Positions 17,990-22,772 of a DNA stretch of 64,000 bases are shown piece after piece; the stretch's first letter is position 1, and every line of letters begins with the position of its first letter. The notes under the pieces are model-generated. The model made no database searches, was not told the origin of the DNA, and saw nothing but the letters and a program-made list of their open reading frames with translations. Source of the DNA: a virus; IMG/VR virus record IMGVR_UViG_3300042295_000443, positions 25,162-89,161 of that record. The stretch is one strand, 5' to 3'. The translations under genes were made by a program, and so were the position numbers.

Positions 17990-18011
17990 TAAATATTTAT
18001 AATACTATAAA

Positions 18012-18066
18012 GCATAATATAGTTTACAAAACTATACTATTTTGTAACTTATATGTTACATTATGC
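18012..18066. promoter_or_regulatory. Nested inverted repeats in the divergent control region
   Basis: Outer arms GCATAAT (18012-18018) and ATTATGC (18060-18066) enclose two perfect inverted repeats: TATAGTTT/AAACTATA around ACA (18018-18036), and TGTAAC/GTTACA around six bases (about 18043-18060). The arrangement could form a cruciform or serve as a multi-site operator. It lies between the late minus-strand block and the early plus-strand block. Confidence 0.6.
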
Positions 18067-18075
18067 ATGCATATT

Positions 18076-18160
18076 CTGGAAAAATTCATGCAGGTTATAT
18101 ACTTATAGTGGAAAATTCCCATCACTAAAACGGTTATAATCCTGTTATGGTGGAAAATTC
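18076..18160 (+). repeat. Three direct repeats with core GTGGAAAATTC
   Basis: Copies lie at 18076-18087 (CTGGAAAAATTC), 18108-18118 and 18150-18160. The last two share a longer upstream part with the pattern GGTTATA, spacer, TTATRG. Spacings of about 32 and 42 bp equal about three and four helical turns, so proteins bound at each copy would face the same side. They may be iterons of an origin or activator sites. Confidence 0.6.
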
Positions 18161-18464
18161 TTACACAAAGTTATATGGTTTTTTAGTATGTGAGATGTAG
18201 AGGTTGGGTGCTATGATACAACCCCCCGCCAAATCCTGTGGAGGTGGTACCCCCCACCAACTTGAGGAGTGTGTCATAAATTCTAGGAAATATTTTAGAA
18301 AAAAATCCTGCTGGGAAAGAAACCTAGCTGCTACAACAGGAGAGGAGAGACAAGAGGTGACATGCTATGTCTACTACATGTACTATGCTAGTGATGTGCT
18401 AGCAAGAGGAGGGAGGCAGGGTGCTATATAATAGGGGTGTGTACTATATGTATAATATAGTATA
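18161..18464. other. Intergenic region without a convincing gene
   Basis: This stretch of about 300 bases is richer in G and C than its surroundings, with C6 runs near 18220 and 18251, a small hairpin (GGTGG/CCACC near 18243-18259) and purine-rich blocks. A 75-codon frame at 18204-18431 has unphage-like codon use and no start context, and I reject it. The end carries a perfect 7-bp inverted repeat, ACTATAT/ATATAGT around GTATA (18443-18461), four bases before leader copy 1, probably promoter or operator sequence. Confidence 0.5.
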
Positions 18465-18503
18465 GCCTTCGGCAGATTATATAACAGCTTATAACTACTA
18501 TGG
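18465..18503 (+). ncRNA. Leader element copy 1
   Basis: It starts GCC-TTC-GGCAG (3-bp stem, 3-nt loop), then nine spacer bases, then ACAGCTT (18484-18490) and an ACTACT stretch. The start codon of the 30-codon gene lies at its 3' end. First of seven copies between 18.4 and 20.4 kb. Confidence 0.65.
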
Positions 18504-18592
18504 AACCAACTAAACTTTGTATCATGATTGTATATGCTGTAATAAACGGAGTAGTTACTGTTAAGGAATGGGTGTTAAATCCTAATGCTTAA
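18500..18592 (+). CDS. Leader-linked 30-residue peptide
   Basis: This 30-codon ORF (ATG 18500, TAA 18590-18592) begins inside the 3' end of leader copy 1 and ends just before a hairpin. The product is hydrophobic in the middle (IMIVYAVINGVV), consistent with a small membrane peptide. Its position between leader and terminator, like the larger genes downstream, supports it being translated. Too short for a firm call. Confidence 0.45.
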   Translation: MEPTKLCIMIVYAVINGVVTVKEWVLNPNA

Positions 18593-18598
18593 TGTTTG

Positions 18599-18620
18599 AG
18601 GGAGCTGTAATAGCTCTCTT
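18599..18620 (+). terminator. Terminator-like hairpin
   Basis: An 8-bp stem (18599-18606 with 18612-18619, one G-U pair) with loop GUAAU. The following U tract is poor, so it may pause or process rather than terminate. Leader copy 2 begins 12 bases later. Confidence 0.45.
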
Positions 18621-18632
18621 AACTATGCTTAA

Positions 18633-18671
18633 GCCTTCGGCAGATGGTACTACAGCTTATAACTGCTAAGG
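18633..18671 (+). ncRNA. Leader element copy 2
   Basis: GCC-TTC-GGCAG at 18633-18643, ACAGCTT at 18652-18658, then AACTGCTAAGG. It lies 38 bases upstream of the ATG at 18709. Confidence 0.68.
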
Positions 18672-18708
18672 ATATATTATATTTATTAACCATCTAAAAC
18701 TTAAAAAG

Positions 18709-18975
18709 ATGAGCAATGTTAAAGGATTCTTAATCAGTGTAAGTGACACTGTAAAAACAAACACTAATGGAACTGAATTCAGATCTTGCATAGTAGCCAT
18801 TGAGGGTGAAAACTATTTTGCAAAAATCTGGGAGAAATCTGTTTCCAAAGCTGTTGTTGGCAATGAGTACACTGTTGAAATGATTGTTGATGGTGAAAAC
18901 TTATGGTTAACATTGTTAACTGGTGTTACTGCAACTATTGCAACACCTAATATGCTTGCACACCTACTTAAATAA
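18709..18975 (+). CDS. Small OB-fold-like protein, paralogue of the 19806 gene
   Basis: This 88-residue protein is about 60% identical by eye to the product of 19806-20081, including RSCIV, GENYFAK, EKS, LWLT and the ATIATP motif. The alternation of beta strands (KGFLISVSD, EFRSCIVAI, NYFAKIWEK, EYTVEMIVD, ENLWLTLLTGV) suggests a five-stranded OB-like barrel, the fold of small single-stranded nucleic-acid-binding proteins. Both genes stand behind a leader element and before a hairpin, so the whole unit was duplicated. Binding to RNA or DNA is a guess. Confidence 0.65.
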   Translation: MSNVKGFLISVSDTVKTNTNGTEFRSCIVAIEGENYFAKIWEKSVSKAVVGNEYTVEMIVDGENLWLTLLTGVTATIATPNMLAHLLK

Positions 18976-18984
18976 TAGGTAGAA

Positions 18985-19015
18985 GATGACACCCTTAATT
19001 GGGTGTTATCTTTAT
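18985..19015 (+). terminator. Intrinsic terminator
   Basis: A 10-bp stem (18985-18994 with 19001-19010, one G-U pair), loop of six bases, then UUUAU. The next leader begins at 19022, only six bases further. Confidence 0.7.
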
Positions 19016-19021
19016 AGTTAA

Positions 19022-19060
19022 GCCTTCGGCAGGAAATGCTACAACTTAAAACTACTCATA
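19022..19060 (+). ncRNA. Leader element copy 3
   Basis: GCC-TTC-GGCAG at 19022-19032, then ACAACTT (19041-19047, one change from ACAGCTT) and ACTACT. The ATG at 19036 lies within this element and is not used as the start of the following gene. Confidence 0.65.
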
Positions 19061-19089
19061 GTATTAATGTTAAATTTAAACTATATATC

Positions 19090-19293
19090 ATGGACACAAC
19101 AACTGTATTACAAATTATTGCTATGCTTGAAGGTGATGCAAAATCATACATTAAACACCTTGATAATACTAATGACCCTTTTGAAACAGGGTACATTAAA
19201 GGTTATCATGATGCTTTAACAAAGCATGCCCACATGCTGCAAGAGTATATTGAACTGCAAGTAAATTATGCAGAGAATGCATTAGGGGAGTAA
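19090..19293 (+). CDS. Small helical hypothetical protein
   Basis: This 67-residue protein starts from the ATG at 19090 (MDTTTVLQII). The upstream ATG at 19036 is rejected because it lies inside leader copy 3. It is almost entirely helical (residues 5-62), with His and Glu on one face, and has the pattern GYIKGYHDALTKHAHM seen in small phage proteins of unknown role. Its TAA stop lies in the apical loop of the terminator at 19284-19304. Confidence 0.6.
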   Translation: MDTTTVLQIIAMLEGDAKSYIKHLDNTNDPFETGYIKGYHDALTKHAHMLQEYIELQVNYAENALGE

Positions 19294-19304
19294 TCCCCTT
19301 TTTT
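19284..19304 (+). terminator. Intrinsic terminator with GUAA tetraloop; stop codon in the loop
   Basis: Stem AGGGGA/TCCCCT (19284-19289 with 19294-19299) is capped by GUAA and followed by U6. The TAA stop codon at 19291-19293 lies within the GNRA tetraloop. The same hairpin occurs at 20968. Confidence 0.8.
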
Positions 19305-19330
19305 AAACTGTAATCCCTAAATTAAAATAT

Positions 19331-19435
19331 ATGTTAATAGTTATTGGAAATGTAATGTTTGTTGCTATAATAGTGTTTATTGCCCGTTGTGGCTACAAGC
19401 TAGAAAAGGCTGATGAAGAAAAGGAAAGGGCTTAG
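19331..19435 (+). CDS. Small membrane peptide (34 residues)
   Basis: This 34-codon ORF (ATG 19331, TAG 19433-19435) encodes a hydrophobic helix (VIGNVMFVAIIVFIA, about residues 4-18) followed by a charged tail (KLEKADEEKERA), a typical single-span peptide. The stop codon is the last three bases of a UUAG loop of a terminator, as in neighbouring units. No leader element precedes it; an A-rich start context does. Confidence 0.6.
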   Translation: MLIVIGNVMFVAIIVFIARCGYKLEKADEEKERA

Positions 19436-19450
19436 GCTCTTTCTTTTTTT
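19424..19450 (+). terminator. Intrinsic terminator; stop codon in the loop
   Basis: Stem GAAAGGGC/GCTCTTTC (19424-19431 with 19436-19443, one G-U), loop TTAG containing the TAG stop of the 34-residue gene, then U7. Confidence 0.78.
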
Positions 19451-19473
19451 GCTCAATCATTCATTCTTATGGA

Positions 19474-19494
19474 GTGGCTTGCGCCACACCTTTT
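19474..19494 (+). terminator. Second terminator-like hairpin
   Basis: A 5-bp GC-rich stem (GTGGC/GCCAC, 19474-19478 with 19483-19487) with loop UUGC, followed by ACC and UUUU. It lies 18 bases before leader copy 4. Confidence 0.5.
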
Positions 19495-19511
19495 ATGTCT
19501 TTCTTTCAATG

Positions 19512-19650
19512 GCCTTCGGCAGGAGTCTCTACAGCTTAGGACTTCTGTGGAGTGTGCCTTTGCCTATGAGGATAAGATGTTACACACTTATAAAGTTCTC
19601 TCTGAAAAAGAACTTGGACAACTACATAGTAATATGTGGTTGTTTTTTTT
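19512..19650 (+). ncRNA. Candidate small RNA: leader copy 4 to terminator
   Basis: Leader copy 4 (19512-19550: GCC-TTC-GGCAG, ACAGCTT at 19531-19537, ACTTCT) is followed by 67 bases and then a strong terminator (19618-19650). No convincing gene lies between; frames of 29 and 33 codons exist but run through the terminator stem, where the duplicated copy at 20150 keeps the helix, not the peptide. It is therefore probably a 139-nt RNA. Alternatively it encodes a membrane peptide of 33 residues from the ATG at 19577. Confidence 0.55.
19618..19650 (+). terminator. Intrinsic terminator with GUAA tetraloop
   Basis: An 11-bp stem (19618-19628 with 19633-19643, one U-G pair) is capped by GUAA and followed by U8. 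It is homologous to the hairpin at 20150-20186, with different end pairs and a GAAA cap there. Confidence 0.85.
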
Positions 19651-19660
19651 GGTAGTTCAA

Positions 19661-19696
19661 TGCTTGGCAGCTGCATAGTAAGTACTGTGTAGCAAA
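19661..19696 (+). repeat. Stem-loop repeat, copy A
   Basis: It contains CTTGGCAG, a 6-bp hairpin CATAGT/ACTGTG around AAGT, and the block TACTGTGTAGCAAA (19683-19696). The same block and the TTGGCA part recur at 20228-20267. Each copy lies between a terminator and a leader element. Confidence 0.55.
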
Positions 19697-19716
19697 ACTA
19701 ATTTATTCTAGATTGG

Positions 19717-19755
19717 GCCTCCGGCAGGTGCCTTTACAGCTTTCTACTGCTGTGG
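19717..19755 (+). ncRNA. Leader element copy 5
   Basis: GCC-TCC-GGCAG at 19717-19727, ACAGCTT at 19736-19742, then ACTGCTGTGG. Here ACAGC can pair with GCTGT to form a second hairpin. A further 7-bp hairpin (19764-19770 with 19776-19782) separates it from the ATG at 19806. Confidence 0.68.
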
Positions 19756-19805
19756 ATATAAGATTGTGAGAAAGCCTCACAACAAAACCAACCCCTATTT
19801 GCAAA

Positions 19806-20081
19806 ATGGAGAAAATGTTAAGAGGTACTCTTATCAGTTTTTCTAATGAGGCAAAAGCCAATGTGAATGGTACTCAGTACCGTTCTTGCATTGTCAATAT
19901 TGGAGGTGAAAATTACTTTGCAAAGCTTTGGGAGAAATCCTTGGCTAAGGCAGTAATTGGAACTGAGTACAATATTGAGGCTGTAGTAGATGGTGATAAC
20001 TTGTGGTTAACGTGCCTTACGGGCGTTAGTGCAACTATTGCTACTCCTGCTACATTCGCTGCTTTGTTAGCAGAATTGTAG
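19806..20081 (+). CDS. Small OB-fold-like protein, paralogue of the 18709 gene
   Basis: This 91-residue protein aligns along its whole length with the 88-residue product of 18709-18975, with shared LISFS, RSCIVNI, GENYFAK, LWEKS, EYNIE, DNLWLT and ATIATP. The predicted five-stranded barrel is kept, and differences fall mostly in loops and the C terminus. Retention of two diverged copies in a phage suggests different binding targets or timing. It is followed by a GAAA-capped terminator related to the one at 19618. Confidence 0.65.
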   Translation: MEKMLRGTLISFSNEAKANVNGTQYRSCIVNIGGENYFAKLWEKSLAKAVIGTEYNIEAVVDGDNLWLTCLTGVSATIATPATFAALLAEL

Positions 20082-20149
20082 GAAGTATCCTAGACTGAGT
20101 AAGACTCGGAGTGTACCACTACTTGGCAACAGAAGTGGAAAATATTAAT

Positions 20150-20186
20150 GAACTACATAGAAATATGTGGTTCATTACTTTTTTTA
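20150..20186 (+). terminator. Intrinsic terminator with GAAA tetraloop
   Basis: A perfect 10-bp stem (20150-20159 with 20164-20173, one U-G) is capped by GAAA, then ATTAC and U7. The core ten bases are identical in position to the stem at 19618, but the loop differs (GAAA against GUAA). Confidence 0.85.
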
Positions 20187-20190
20187 AACA

Positions 20191-20202
20191 GCCTTTGGCA
20201 GA
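20191..20202 (+). ncRNA. Leader element copy 6 (degenerate)
   Basis: GCC-TTT-GGCAG is present, but the downstream ACAGCTT is lost (TATACAAAAT instead). It lies directly after the terminator U run. No gene follows before the next repeat, so it may be decayed. Confidence 0.45.
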
Positions 20203-20227
20203 AAGAGTATACAAAATAAAAGATAAT

Positions 20228-20267
20228 ATTTGCCTTGGCAAGTACTAATAGGTACTGTGTAGCAAAT
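20228..20267 (+). repeat. Stem-loop repeat, copy B
   Basis: Arms ATTTGC (20228-20233) and GCAAAT (20262-20267) enclose AGTAC/GTACT and the block TACTGTGTAGCAAA shared with copy A at 19683. The outer stem is longer than in copy A, which keeps only TGC/GCA. Confidence 0.55.
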
Positions 20268-20289
20268 AGTCTATATATATACTTAACCG

Positions 20290-20330
20290 GCCTCCGGCAG
20301 GTGGGGCGTACAGCTTTCAACTTCTTTGAG
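20290..20330 (+). ncRNA. Leader element copy 7
   Basis: GCC-TCC-GGCAG at 20290-20300, ACAGCTT at 20310-20316, then AACTTCTTTGAG. It opens a structured region without a gene rather than an ORF. Confidence 0.65.
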
Positions 20331-20331
20331 T

Positions 20332-20680
20332 GTGGTTAGGCCACGGTCATCTAGACCTACTAACCACCTATGTAACTATTAAAACTAGATTATTATAACA
20401 AAGTCTCCAGCCTGTGCAACAATGTGACTTTGGTACTGATAATCAGGTAGTTATAAAATGAGATATGTGAGAAAAAGAGGAAGAATGAGATTAACTATTA
20501 ACCTATCCAAGAATTTATAGGCAGAAATAGTCAGCAGAAATGGTCTTAAAGCCTAATATTATATAGTATATAGCTAAAACAGACTTAGTATATACATTAA
20601 GAATAGTATTATCTCTTTCTATAGTTAGAGTAACATAATAACTTATTCCGGAATTAAATAAATTTAAAACTATATATACT
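20332..20680 (+). ncRNA. Gene-free stretch with structured RNA
   Basis: These 350 bases hold no convincing gene. The first third is structured: an 8-bp helix (20332-20339 with 20360-20367) encloses GGTC/GACC (20345-20348 with 20354-20357); a 7-bp helix follows (20399-20405 with 20426-20432); then CTGA/TCAG around TAA (20436-20446). The rest (20460-20680) is A-rich with only weak hairpins and probably carries the leader of the next gene. With leader copy 7 at its head this could be one small RNA of about 160-200 nt. No U-rich terminator is evident. Confidence 0.5.
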
Positions 20681-20977
20681 ATGAAAGATTTCATTCACAC
20701 AGGTTGGTGGGGACCTACATTAACTACCACTGAAGATCCTGAATTAAAAGTTATTGAAAGAGATAATGGTCATTCTTGGACTATGAACTTTTATGTTGGT
20801 CATCATTTAATTGATTGCATAAATATGGAATGGTGCCGTGGTACTAAACTAGACAAAGATGTTCTTAGACTTCCTGTGTATAGTGATGAAGGTATCTACT
20901 TAGGTAGTCTTGCTAAAAGATTAGAAGATGCAATTAATGTTATGCATCCAGAACCTATGTTTCATACAGGGGAGTAA
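20681..20977 (+). CDS. Hypothetical protein, 98 residues
   Basis: The product has several Trp and His residues in the first half (TGWWGPTLTTTED, NGHSWTMNFYVGHHLID) and a helical C-terminal half (LAKRLEDAINVMHPE). The compact mixed composition suggests a stable fold. Its stop TAA lies in the GUAA loop of the terminator at 20968-20986. No family is recognised. Confidence 0.55.
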   Translation: MKDFIHTGWWGPTLTTTEDPELKVIERDNGHSWTMNFYVGHHLIDCINMEWCRGTKLDKDVLRLPVYSDEGIYLGSLAKRLEDAINVMHPEPMFHTGE

Positions 20978-20986
20978 TCCCCTTTT
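20968..20986 (+). terminator. Intrinsic terminator with GUAA tetraloop; stop codon in the loop
   Basis: Stem AGGGGA/TCCCCT (20968-20973 with 20978-20983) and loop GUAA hold the TAA stop of the 98-residue gene, followed by UUUUA. It is the same hairpin as at 19284. The large structured RNA starts about ten bases later. Confidence 0.78.
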
Positions 20987-20995
20987 ATTTAGTAT

Positions 20996-22074
20996 TGTTG
21001 CCTTTTCTTTAACCAGGCAAGTATCCAGTAAGTTGCTGGCGTGGGACTGTCCAGTATAGTTACAAGACAGTAGGGTTTGGTCTATTTCCCTTAAAGACCA
21101 TTAAGTACACAATGTTGTTACCCTCAGAGTTTAGATACTCATGGTGTGTGCGTTAAACCTATTATAACGGTTACTAAAACAACAGGTCAGCTCTCGTGAC
21201 CAAAGGATAAACCAGTAATGGTATAAAGTGATATGTTGGTAACATATTGCGCAGGAGTAATCCTGTCTACAGAAGAGTATTGTAACTACCTACATTTTGG
21301 TGTGCTTGTGGCCTAACGGTTGATGCATAGAGATGTAGACTTTCTAACAGGTAGGAAGTTGAGACAGAAATGTCAATAGAAAGTGCAATAGGTAACAATA
21401 GTACATCTCGCCAAGATGGAAGTTGTTATTAGTGAGATGTTCTTTATGCTACTAGAAATAGTGTGTATTTACATCAAACAGTGAGTAAGCTTGGCCGCTT
21501 AAAGCAATGTGAAGTTATAACTAAGGTACTCAAAAGGTATTATGTTATATAAAGTTGGAACTACTTCACATTATTTCCTGAACCGCATTTAAACTAAAAA
21601 CTTAAAAGCAAAGAATGTTCTAGCACTTATTAGTGAAAATGCTCTTATCCTACTGCAATATGTAGGTACAGAAGACCCGCAAGGTTTATGTAAAGGGACT
21701 GATTAATATCTTAACTAGCAGTAGACATACTGTGTATCCCGTAAGGAAGTTGGTATGAAAGGAAACTTATTGCACTAATATGTAAAAGTATGATGATACT
21801 ATAAATCATTGAGCATGTTGTTTACTTATAGAAATATAAGTGTGTATGAGGAGAAGAAATTTTCCAAAAATAGCAACATGAAAGGTCAATACTCATCCTT
21901 TCAATAGTAATGCACCATTTCTACTTCACAAGGGTAGACAGTTGTAATGTATGAACGCAACACTACTAGATTTTATCACTAGAAAGATGTTACATAGGGT
22001 TTTAATTAAAGAAGACTGATAATCTTTTTTATAACCTGCCGGAAACTTACATTATAACTGAGTGCAGAGTGATA
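20996..22074 (+). ncRNA. Large structured non-coding RNA (about 1.1 kb)
   Basis: No frame of 60 codons exists on either strand, yet the sequence is dense in helices. Clear pairs: 20998-21003/21015-21020, 21046-21051/21066-21071, 21078-21083/21095-21100, 21105-21111/21145-21151, 21185-21189/21197-21201, 21231-21237/21241-21247, 21506-21515/21563-21572 (10 bp perfect), and a three-way junction closed by 21814-21820/21874-21880 with two GAAA-capped arms (21824-21841, 21850-21865). GNRA loops on the plus strand: 21215, 21257, 21367, 21455, 21831, 21856. On the minus strand these would be UUAC or UUUC, so the RNA is read from the plus strand. It resembles in scale the GOLLD and ROOL classes of phage RNAs, but I cannot assign it to a class. 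Confidence 0.72.
21905..22074 (+). repeat. 3' domain of the large RNA, repeat copy 1
   Basis: It starts TAGTAATGCACCA, then a hairpin TCTAC/GTAGA (21920-21924 with 21934-21938) with loop TTCACAAGG, then a 13-bp helix (21939-21951 with 22048-22060), and ends GAGTGCAGAG with GATA. The same order and loop recur at 22291-22414 with compensatory changes in both helices. Confidence 0.72.
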
Positions 22075-22103
22075 TTAAATAGTAACCAACTAAACTATAA
22101 TAT

Positions 22104-22256
22104 ATGATTTTTCAATTGATTGCTCAAATTATTAAAGATGCTGATAAAGTATCAAACAAGAAATTAGATAAAGCTGCTTATGCAGATTATCTCAATACTC
22201 TTTCTCTAGATGATCTACTATTCCTTAAGGATAGTTATAGTTCAGAGTTAGTATAG
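22104..22256 (+). CDS. Small helical protein (50 residues)
   Basis: This 50-codon ORF (ATG 22104, TAG 22254-22256) has normal phage codon use and A-rich start context. The product is two helices, hydrophobic at the start (IFQLIAQIIKDADKV) and acidic later (LSLDDLLFLKDSYSSELV). It lies between the two copies of the repeated RNA domain, an unusual place for a gene. A 9-bp hairpin follows. Confidence 0.6.
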   Translation: MIFQLIAQIIKDADKVSNKKLDKAAYADYLNTLSLDDLLFLKDSYSSELV

Positions 22257-22264
22257 TACTTATT

Positions 22265-22288
22265 CCTGCAAGATTAATTTCTTGTGGG
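22265..22288 (+). terminator. Hairpin after the 50-residue gene
   Basis: A 9-bp stem (22265-22273 with 22280-22288, with two wobble pairs) has a six-base A/U loop. No U run follows, so it may be a processing or stabilising hairpin rather than a terminator. Confidence 0.5.
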
Positions 22289-22290
22289 AT

Positions 22291-22525
22291 TAGTAATACA
22301 CCACTTCTCATTCCCAAGGTGAGACAGTTGTAATAGTAAGAGAGCAGGTTGCTTAGTCACACCTGCGGTAAATAATACTAAATCTTACACATTACAACTG
22401 AGTACAGAGGGATAACAAGGGTCATAACCTTGGGGCATAACTAAGAGCTAGTAAGAAGACATAGAGTTCATTTTATTATGAAAGATACAACTCTTATTAG
22501 AACAACTCTTAGTTAATGCTTTATA
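22291..22525 (+). ncRNA. Second structured RNA: repeat copy 2 plus a long hairpin
   Basis: It repeats the 3' domain of the large RNA: TAGTAATACACCA, hairpin TCTCA/TGAGA (22306-22310 with 22320-22324) with loop TTCCCAAGG, helix CAGTTGTAAT/ATTACAACTG (22325-22334 with 22391-22400) extended by GTAAGA/TCTTAC (22336-22341 with 22383-22388), and an inner 6-bp hairpin (22344-22349 with 22361-22366). Then comes CAAGG/CCTTG and a 13-bp helix (22435-22447 with 22506-22519, one bulge). The last helix ends 14 bases before the ATG of the S10-like gene, so this may double as its leader. Confidence 0.68.
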
Positions 22526-22532
22526 AATATGT

Positions 22533-22772
22533 ATGAAATATATACAATTTATAATTGAAAGTAATTCTAATAAGAAATTAGATGCTTTCACTAAAGAATG
22601 TATTAATGCCATCAGAAGATCTGGTGCTGTTAAAGCTGGTCCAATACCTTTTAAAGGTAAAAGATTATTTTATTGTTACAGTCCTAATGGAAAGACTATT
22701 GATAGACTTATGTCATTAAAATGTCCTAAAGGTGTGTTAGTAACAATAAATTCTTTGGAAAATCCTCAATAA
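22533..22772 (+). CDS. S10/NusE-like protein lacking the ribosome-binding loop
   Basis: This 79-residue protein lines up with ribosomal protein uS10. KKLDAFTKECINAIRRSGA (residues 14-32) matches the first helix, GPIP (36-39) is the invariant S10 turn, and KTIDRLMSLKCPKGVLVTI (54-72) matches KTVDALMRL...GVDVQI. The 20-odd residues that form the long ribosome-anchoring loop of S10 are replaced by a short GKRLFYCYSPNG turn. In E. coli, S10 is also NusE, a partner of NusB and RNA polymerase in antitermination, and the loop is dispensable for that role. A transcription role rather than a ribosomal one is therefore inferred. No stop hairpin follows. Confidence 0.65.
   Translation: MKYIQFIIESNSNKKLDAFTKECINAIRRSGAVKAGPIPFKGKRLFYCYSPNGKTIDRLMSLKCPKGVLVTINSLENPQ

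What the first reader, a model, noticed from the sequence alone, without database searches (positions are those of the whole stretch)
20996..22074. About 1.1 kb of densely structured RNA with no gene, possibly a new class of giant phage ncRNA
No frame of 60 codons exists on either strand, but many perfect helices do, including a 10-bp helix (21506-21515 with 21563-21572) and a three-way junction (21814-21880) with two GAAA-capped arms. At least six hairpins have GNRA loops on the plus strand, which fixes the orientation. Size, GNRA richness and early-region location resemble GOLLD and ROOL RNAs of phages, but I cannot place it in either class.
Basis: partly seen in the sequence, partly recalled or inferred. 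Interest (0 to 1): 0.92.

Follow-up and report, generated by a model that had tools for sequence, protein, structure and literature searches.

The report
GOLLD RNA with twister-like tail
The gene-free kilobase in this uncultured virus encodes a divergent member of the known giant phage RNA called GOLLD, and in every relative found it is followed by what looks like a self-cutting RNA (a twister-type ribozyme) placed so that it would trim the giant RNA's 3' end.

Summary
In detail: 20996-22074 has no open frame of 60 codons and folds better than shuffles on the plus strand only. The interval contains two RNAs.

(1) About 20996-21908 is a GOLLD RNA. Its 3' domain (21507-21899) matches the whole Rfam model RF02032 at E=5.9e-25 (88 bits, below the 150-bit curated cut-off). 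Nine related virus contigs carry it, and compensatory changes support the fold. It is an accessory cassette: two close relatives lack it.

(2) 21908-22071 is a separate three-way-junction RNA with a pseudoknot, unmatched by Rfam, with 143 copies in the fetched loci. Its anatomy fits the twister self-cleaving ribozyme: U|AA before a 4-bp P2, a P4 loop U-CCC-AA-GG, T1 pseudoknot CCC:GGG covarying to CAC:GUG, and G-A after P2'. In all GOLLD copies found it starts 4-7 nt after the GOLLD 3' end, so cleavage at 21908|21909 would release GOLLD with a defined end.

GOLLD identity is near certain. Twister identity is strongly inferred; cleavage is untested. 'New class' is not supported. I found no report of GOLLD paired with a ribozyme in the papers I could search.

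The parts
20966..20985 (+). terminator-like hairpin and T run ending the upstream 98-aa gene (20681-20977)
   Evidence: AGGGGAGTAATCCCCTTTT, exact second copy at 19284-19302
20990..21097 (+). variable 5' leader of the GOLLD transcript
   Evidence: shared with some relatives, replaced by an unrelated leader in others
21098..21506 (+). GOLLD 5' domain, the part shared by all full-length relatives
   Evidence: alignment A1, consensus fold with compensatory changes
21507..21899 (+). GOLLD 3' domain, full RF02032 match
   Evidence: 88 bits, E=1.3e-22, 5.9e-25; pair counts
21573..21617 (+). variable A-rich linker inside the 3' domain
   Evidence: most variable and indel-rich stretch of the 3' domain in A1; matches the disordered linker described for GOLLD env-38
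21908..22071 (+). twister-like ribozyme; predicted cut between U21908 and A21909; P2 21911-21914/22063-22066, P4 21920-21924/21934-21938 with loop 21925-21933, P5 21939-21948/22051-22060, T1 21927-21929 with 22069-22071, T2 candidate 21915-21916 with 21932-21933
22104..22256 (+). 50-aa ORF directly behind the ribozyme
   Evidence: kept in L003 and L004, which lack GOLLD
22294..22409 (+). second twister-like copy, P2 with two mismatches (TACA/TACA)

Best explanation
The interval is a GOLLD RNA gene plus its own 3'-processing element. A transcript starting near 20986-21018 folds into the two-domain GOLLD RNA (5' domain ~21018-21506, 3' domain 21507-21899). Directly behind it the same transcript folds a twister-type self-cleaving ribozyme (21908-22071), which would cut between U21908 and A21909. 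This frees GOLLD with a defined 3' end and leaves the ribozyme on the 5' end of the message for the next small gene. Freed GOLLD would then presumably assemble into the RNA cage shown for other GOLLD RNAs and act late in infection. Shown here: GOLLD homology, the conserved fold, the ribozyme-like anatomy, the constant 4-7 nt spacing, and presence/absence of the cassette. Inferred: catalysis, cage assembly, timing and role.
For: GOLLD: full-length model match E=1.3e-22 and 5.9e-25. Six related records also match at 83-103 bits, E 5.8e-24 to 9.7e-30. The 14 control genomes give no hit. Rfam pairs projected on 9 sequences: 89.2% of cells paired against 36-45% when partners are slid; 32 cells with both-side changes against 13.7 +/- 3.1 shuffled. 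RNAalifold gives 219 pairs, 20 with compensatory changes. Twister-like element: an anchored search found 143 copies, all with UAA 5' of P2 although that search did not require it (42/42 in loci not fetched with a TAA pattern); P2 TGCA 112 / TGTA 29 with matching partners; T1 CCC:GGG 136 and CAC:GTG 7; a reversed-partner control gave 2. In the earlier count P2 position 3 is T-A instead of C-G in 20 of 120 copies, and two P4 positions show all four Watson-Crick types. These match the reviews' twister features: U-A cleavage step, 4-bp P2 flanked by A and G, three-pair T1, two-nucleotide T2, P4 loop. Linkage: 10 of 10 GOLLD copies examined carry an intact core 4-7 nt after the invariant CTCA[GT]CCTTTCA end; five also have one upstream. 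Records near 100 kb mostly hold one copy, while the window's record and a GOLLD-bearing relative hold two.
Against: GOLLD scores stay below the curated cut-off. Rfam twister models do not match. Outer stem P1 is weak (mean best helix 3.47 against 3.00 permuted), although P1 is dispensable in the test tube (PMC5408937). L4 has an extra U, and T2 would be CC:GG instead of the usual GC. P5 is present in every copy, whereas it occurs in ~1% of annotated twisters (PMC6154101). The same element occurs in many phages in which no GOLLD was found, so trimming GOLLD is not its only job. The ten GOLLD copies are not all independent (L051 and L065 identical there, L045 and L059 nearly so). No RNA data.
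Confidence: 0.76

Rival explanations
1. GOLLD as above, but the 3' element is a non-catalytic structured RNA: a 5'-UTR regulator or an RNA-stabilising fold that protects message ends. It sits behind GOLLD because it marks the start of the next message.
For: Next gene on the same strand in 95 of 116 copies with a neighbour; 36 of those 95 lie within about 54 nt of the start codon. No Rfam twister match. Occurs in many loci without a GOLLD match.
Against: UAA, P2, T1 and the GA after P2' reproduce the twister core piece by piece, which a riboswitch or stabiliser has no reason to do. A ribozyme would also end up in a 5'-UTR, so the position does not decide.
Confidence: 0.17
2. The repeated element is mainly a DNA-level exchange point: cassettes (small genes, GOLLD) are swapped by recombination between near-identical ~44-bp copies, much as genes are swapped at integron attC sites.
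For: Presence/absence of GOLLD and neighbours between close relatives. P5 inserts are shared between elements at different positions: the window's second copy and L051's GOLLD-adjacent copy share an insert.
Against: Compensatory changes in P2, P4 and T1 need RNA pairing. Most records hold only one copy. No recombinase was looked for.
Confidence: 0.1
3. A new class of giant RNA that only resembles GOLLD.
For: Below the gathering score; distinct 5' domain; no blastn match in GenBank phages.
Against: End-to-end model alignment at E<1e-22, six independent record matches, and pairs of the GOLLD model conserved with covariation.
Confidence: 0.03

Closest known systems
GOLLD RNA (Rfam RF02032; cryo-EM 14-mer cage of GOLLD env-38, PMC12286853)
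   Same: Full 3'-domain model match, ~900 nt length, divergent 5' domain, variable internal linker, phage location, Arg-tRNA gene within about 1.4-6 kb in five relatives.
   Different: A divergent AT-rich subgroup below the gathering score (83-103 bits against over 200 bits for typical phage GOLLDs found). It ends at a twister-like element, whereas two typical GOLLDs (L099, L100) are followed by T runs. Cage contacts were not testable.
Twister self-cleaving ribozyme (types P1, P3, P5; Rfam RF03160 and related)
   Same: U|AA, 4-bp P2 flanked by A and G, T1 three-pair pseudoknot between L4 and L1, two-nucleotide T2 candidate, P4 hairpin.
   Different: Weak P1, no P3, P5 always present and hypervariable, extra U in L4, T2 CC:GG; no Rfam match.
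ROOL and OLE RNAs
   Same: Large ornate phage or bacterial RNAs.
   Different: No Rfam match for either at gathering or at E<=10 over 18000-22600.

Membership tests
GOLLD (RF02032) | full-length match to the Rfam covariance model | tested here: met
   model 1-416/416, E=5.9e-25
GOLLD (RF02032) | score at or above the curated gathering score (150 bits) | tested here: not met
   88 bits. This is a database cut-off, not a structural feature; relatives reach 103 bits
GOLLD (RF02032) | conserved 3' domain fold supported by covariation | tested here: met
   89.2% cells paired, 11 pairs and 32 cells with both-side changes. One Rfam helix (columns 758-776) is not kept as drawn; a shifted helix replaces it
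GOLLD (RF02032) | length over ~800 nt with a less conserved 5' domain | tested here: met
   ~910 nt to the predicted cut; 5' leaders differ between relatives
GOLLD (RF02032) | phage or prophage location, often near tRNAs | tested here: inconclusive
   virus record; no tRNA in the window, tRNA-Arg in the fetched loci of five of nine relatives
GOLLD (RF02032) | homo-14-mer RNA cage | not testable with these tools
   needs cryo-EM or mass photometry
twister ribozyme | U-A cleavage step with conserved A 5' of P2 | tested here: met
   UAA in 143/143 copies; 42/42 in loci not selected for it
twister ribozyme | 4-bp P2 flanked by A and G | tested here: met
   P2 TGCA/TGCA, TGTA/TACA and rarer types; G after P2' in 141/143
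twister ribozyme | T1 pseudoknot, three pairs between L4 and L1 | tested here: met
   CCC:GGG 136, CAC:GTG 7 (where complementarity was required); one search did not require it for the middle pair and found 120/120 paired
twister ribozyme | T2 pseudoknot, two nucleotides of L4 with L2 | tested here: inconclusive
   CC:GG 136, TC:GG 7; nearly invariant, no true covariation
twister ribozyme | outer stem P1 | tested here: inconclusive
   slight excess of complementarity, 0 of 300 permutations as high; many copies show none
twister ribozyme | match to a curated Rfam twister model | tested here: not met
   no match at E<=10; RF03160 none in the record
twister ribozyme | self-cleavage | not testable with these tools
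   bench assay needed
ROOL / OLE | match to the Rfam model | tested here: not met
   none at gathering or E<=10

The most novel reading that the evidence does not exclude
A lineage of uncultured phages makes its giant GOLLD RNA as a self-released transcript. A previously unlisted subgroup of twister ribozymes, with a hypervariable P5 domain that can even hold a tRNA, sits a few nucleotides behind GOLLD and cuts its 3' end; in some phages a second copy sits in front.
Probability: 0.65. Interest if true: 0.75.

Novelty: new variant of a known kind. Interest (0 to 1): 0.62.

Why it matters
GOLLD RNAs build ribosome-sized cages of unknown function, and how their ends are made is not described in the papers I could read. 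A ribozyme fixed at the 3' end of a whole subgroup gives a direct, cheap test of GOLLD maturation and a handle (a cleavage-dead mutant) to ask whether a free 3' end is needed for cage assembly. The element also adds 143 divergent twister-like sequences with a recurrent P5 domain that current models miss, and the case shows that default Rfam thresholds hide GOLLD in phages of this kind.

Tried and rejected
Gathering-level Rfam scan found nothing. Blastn against GenBank phages: no GOLLD match, and only short weak matches for the 3' element. A ROOL or new-class reading was rejected. Hidden-gene reading: no ORF of 60 aa and single-base indels in A1, no support. tRNAs in the P5 inserts: ARAGORN found none; Rfam found one in L027. 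Attempts to fetch a textbook twister for side-by-side alignment failed, so the comparison rests on the reviews. A literature search for GOLLD with crAss listed only unrelated papers; GOLLD with ribozyme gave nothing relevant, and the held main text of PMC12286853 does not mention twister or self-cleavage. The D2 repeats (18464-20330) could not be explained.

Full report
1. Observation. The window is part of an 89-kb IMG/VR virus record. Between 20978 and 22532 there is no ORF of 60 aa. The plus strand of 21018-21903 folds better than all of 20 dinucleotide shuffles (z=-2.7); the minus strand does not stand out (z=-1.2).

2. GOLLD. The default Rfam scan of the window is empty. With the E-value threshold the GOLLD model RF02032 aligns from first to last position at 21507-21899, 88 bits, E=1.3e-22, and E=5.9e-25 in a search of the whole record with no hit in 14 control genomes. 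The curated cut-off is 150 bits, so automatic annotation misses it.

3. Relatives. DNA patterns and a neighbouring protein brought in nine virus contigs with the RNA at 88-94% identity over most of 20990-21948; L051 and L065 are the same there, and L045 and L059 nearly so. Six of these records match the GOLLD model on their own at 83-103 bits. The other three (L040, L051, L065) were not reported by that filtered search, but they align with the rest. Typical phage GOLLDs found by a motif pattern score above 200 bits, so this is a divergent subgroup.

4. Structure. On the nine-sequence alignment A1 RNAalifold proposes 219 pairs, 20 with compensatory changes. The Rfam structure projected on it (85 pairs) keeps 89.2% of cells paired, against 36-45% when partners are slid by 1-3 columns. 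It has 32 cells changed on both sides against 13.7 +/- 3.1 in shuffles. One Rfam helix (columns 758-776) is replaced by a shifted helix. The most variable stretch of the 3' domain is the A-rich linker, which fits the disordered linker of GOLLD env-38 (PMC12286853). The 5' end is modular: some relatives have an unrelated leader before ~21098. L026 carries the leader and the 3' element without the GOLLD body.

5. Accessory cassette. L003 shares 20183-20665 and 22103-22343 with the window (93.5% and 79% identical) but lacks everything between, that is, the 98-aa gene and GOLLD. L004 has another gene there and no GOLLD. The 98-aa gene occurs in ten loci, of which only the two contigs behind L072 and L073 carry GOLLD behind it.

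6. The 3' element. Its core is UAA, a short helix, a hairpin with loop UUC[C/A]CAAGG, a variable stem, A, the helix partner, then GA and G[G/U]G. In 120 copies the helix is T-A instead of C-G at position 3 in 20, the hairpin varies through many Watson-Crick types, and loop and tail change together from CCC/GGG to CAC/GTG. The hairpin and variable-stem counts partly select for pairing, so I repeated the search anchored only on the loop and on complementarity. It gave 143 copies, all preceded by UAA, which had not been asked for. A reversed-partner control gave 2. The 42 copies from loci not fetched with a UAA pattern give the same result. 86 of 112 loci with the element also encode a homologue of a window protein. 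The bacterial genome collection gave five pattern matches, of which only one, in a 4.6-kb contig, looks like the element. The element therefore belongs to this phage lineage.

7. Why twister. PMC5408937 and PMC6154101 describe twister as: a U-A cleavage step; a four-pair P2 capped by a sheared A-G pair; a T1 pseudoknot of three pairs plus an A-A pair between the P4 loop and the strand after P2'; a T2 pseudoknot of two nucleotides; optional P3 and P5; and a P1 that is conserved but dispensable for cleavage. The element has each of these except a clear P1 and an independently tested T2. It differs in always having P5, in an extra U in the loop and in CC:GG for T2, and no Rfam twister model matches. 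I therefore say it works like a twister and do not file it as a curated member. How I place these features on the letters follows the reviews' wording and my own memory of twister sequences; no textbook twister could be aligned here.

8. Linkage. In all ten GOLLD copies (including duplicates) an intact core begins 4-7 nt after the invariant GOLLD end CTCA[GT]CCTTTCA; five also carry a core upstream of GOLLD. Of 17 records searched with the motif pattern, fifteen match. Thirteen of these hold one copy; the window record and the GOLLD-bearing G034 hold two. Predicted cleavage at 21908|21909 would end GOLLD 9 nt after the Rfam model end. Two typical GOLLDs (L099, L100) are instead followed by T runs, which suggests an intrinsic terminator there. 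The window's second copy (22294-22409) has two mismatches in P2 and may be inactive.

9. Limits. There are no transcript or cleavage data. GOLLD relatives are close (88-94%), so covariation, though clear, rests on few independent changes. Phage taxonomy was only probed by a terminase search, which hit Bacteroidota phages at under 60% identity.

Noticed in passing
L027:12540-12678: The variable P5 stem of this twister-like copy holds a tRNA-like gene (Rfam tRNA, 47 bits) whose acceptor stem is part of the P5 helix itself, with extra bases in the anticodon region; ARAGORN does not call it.
   Followed up: partly
window 18464-20330: Six copies of a ~41-nt repeat GCCTTCGGCAG...TACAGCTTATAACTGCTAAGGATA, several of them shortly before small genes; further copies in L003, L004, L051. 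Structure and role unclear.
   Followed up: partly
window 22294-22409: Second twister-like copy with P2 reading TACA/TACA (two mismatches); possibly inactive or tolerant of A-C pairs.
   Followed up: partly
L026:2800-3000 (minus strand): The first ~53 nt of the GOLLD transcript region sit next to a twister-like element without the GOLLD body: a deletion remnant or an independent leader element.
   Followed up: no
window 18709-18975 and 19806-20081: Two paralogous small genes (DNA about 71-73% identical over ~190 bp) with no PHROG match, part of the same plastic small-gene region.
   Followed up: no
L045:4771-5101 and the equivalent in L059: Two twister-like elements in a row behind GOLLD, the first a minimal 66-nt form with a short P5 hairpin.
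   Followed up: partly
window 18016-18440: A ~400-bp stretch between the two divergent gene arrays with only a 75-aa TTG-start ORF and a G/C-rich patch (CCCCCCGCC...GGTGGTACCCCCCACC); possibly a divergent promoter or origin region.
   Followed up: no
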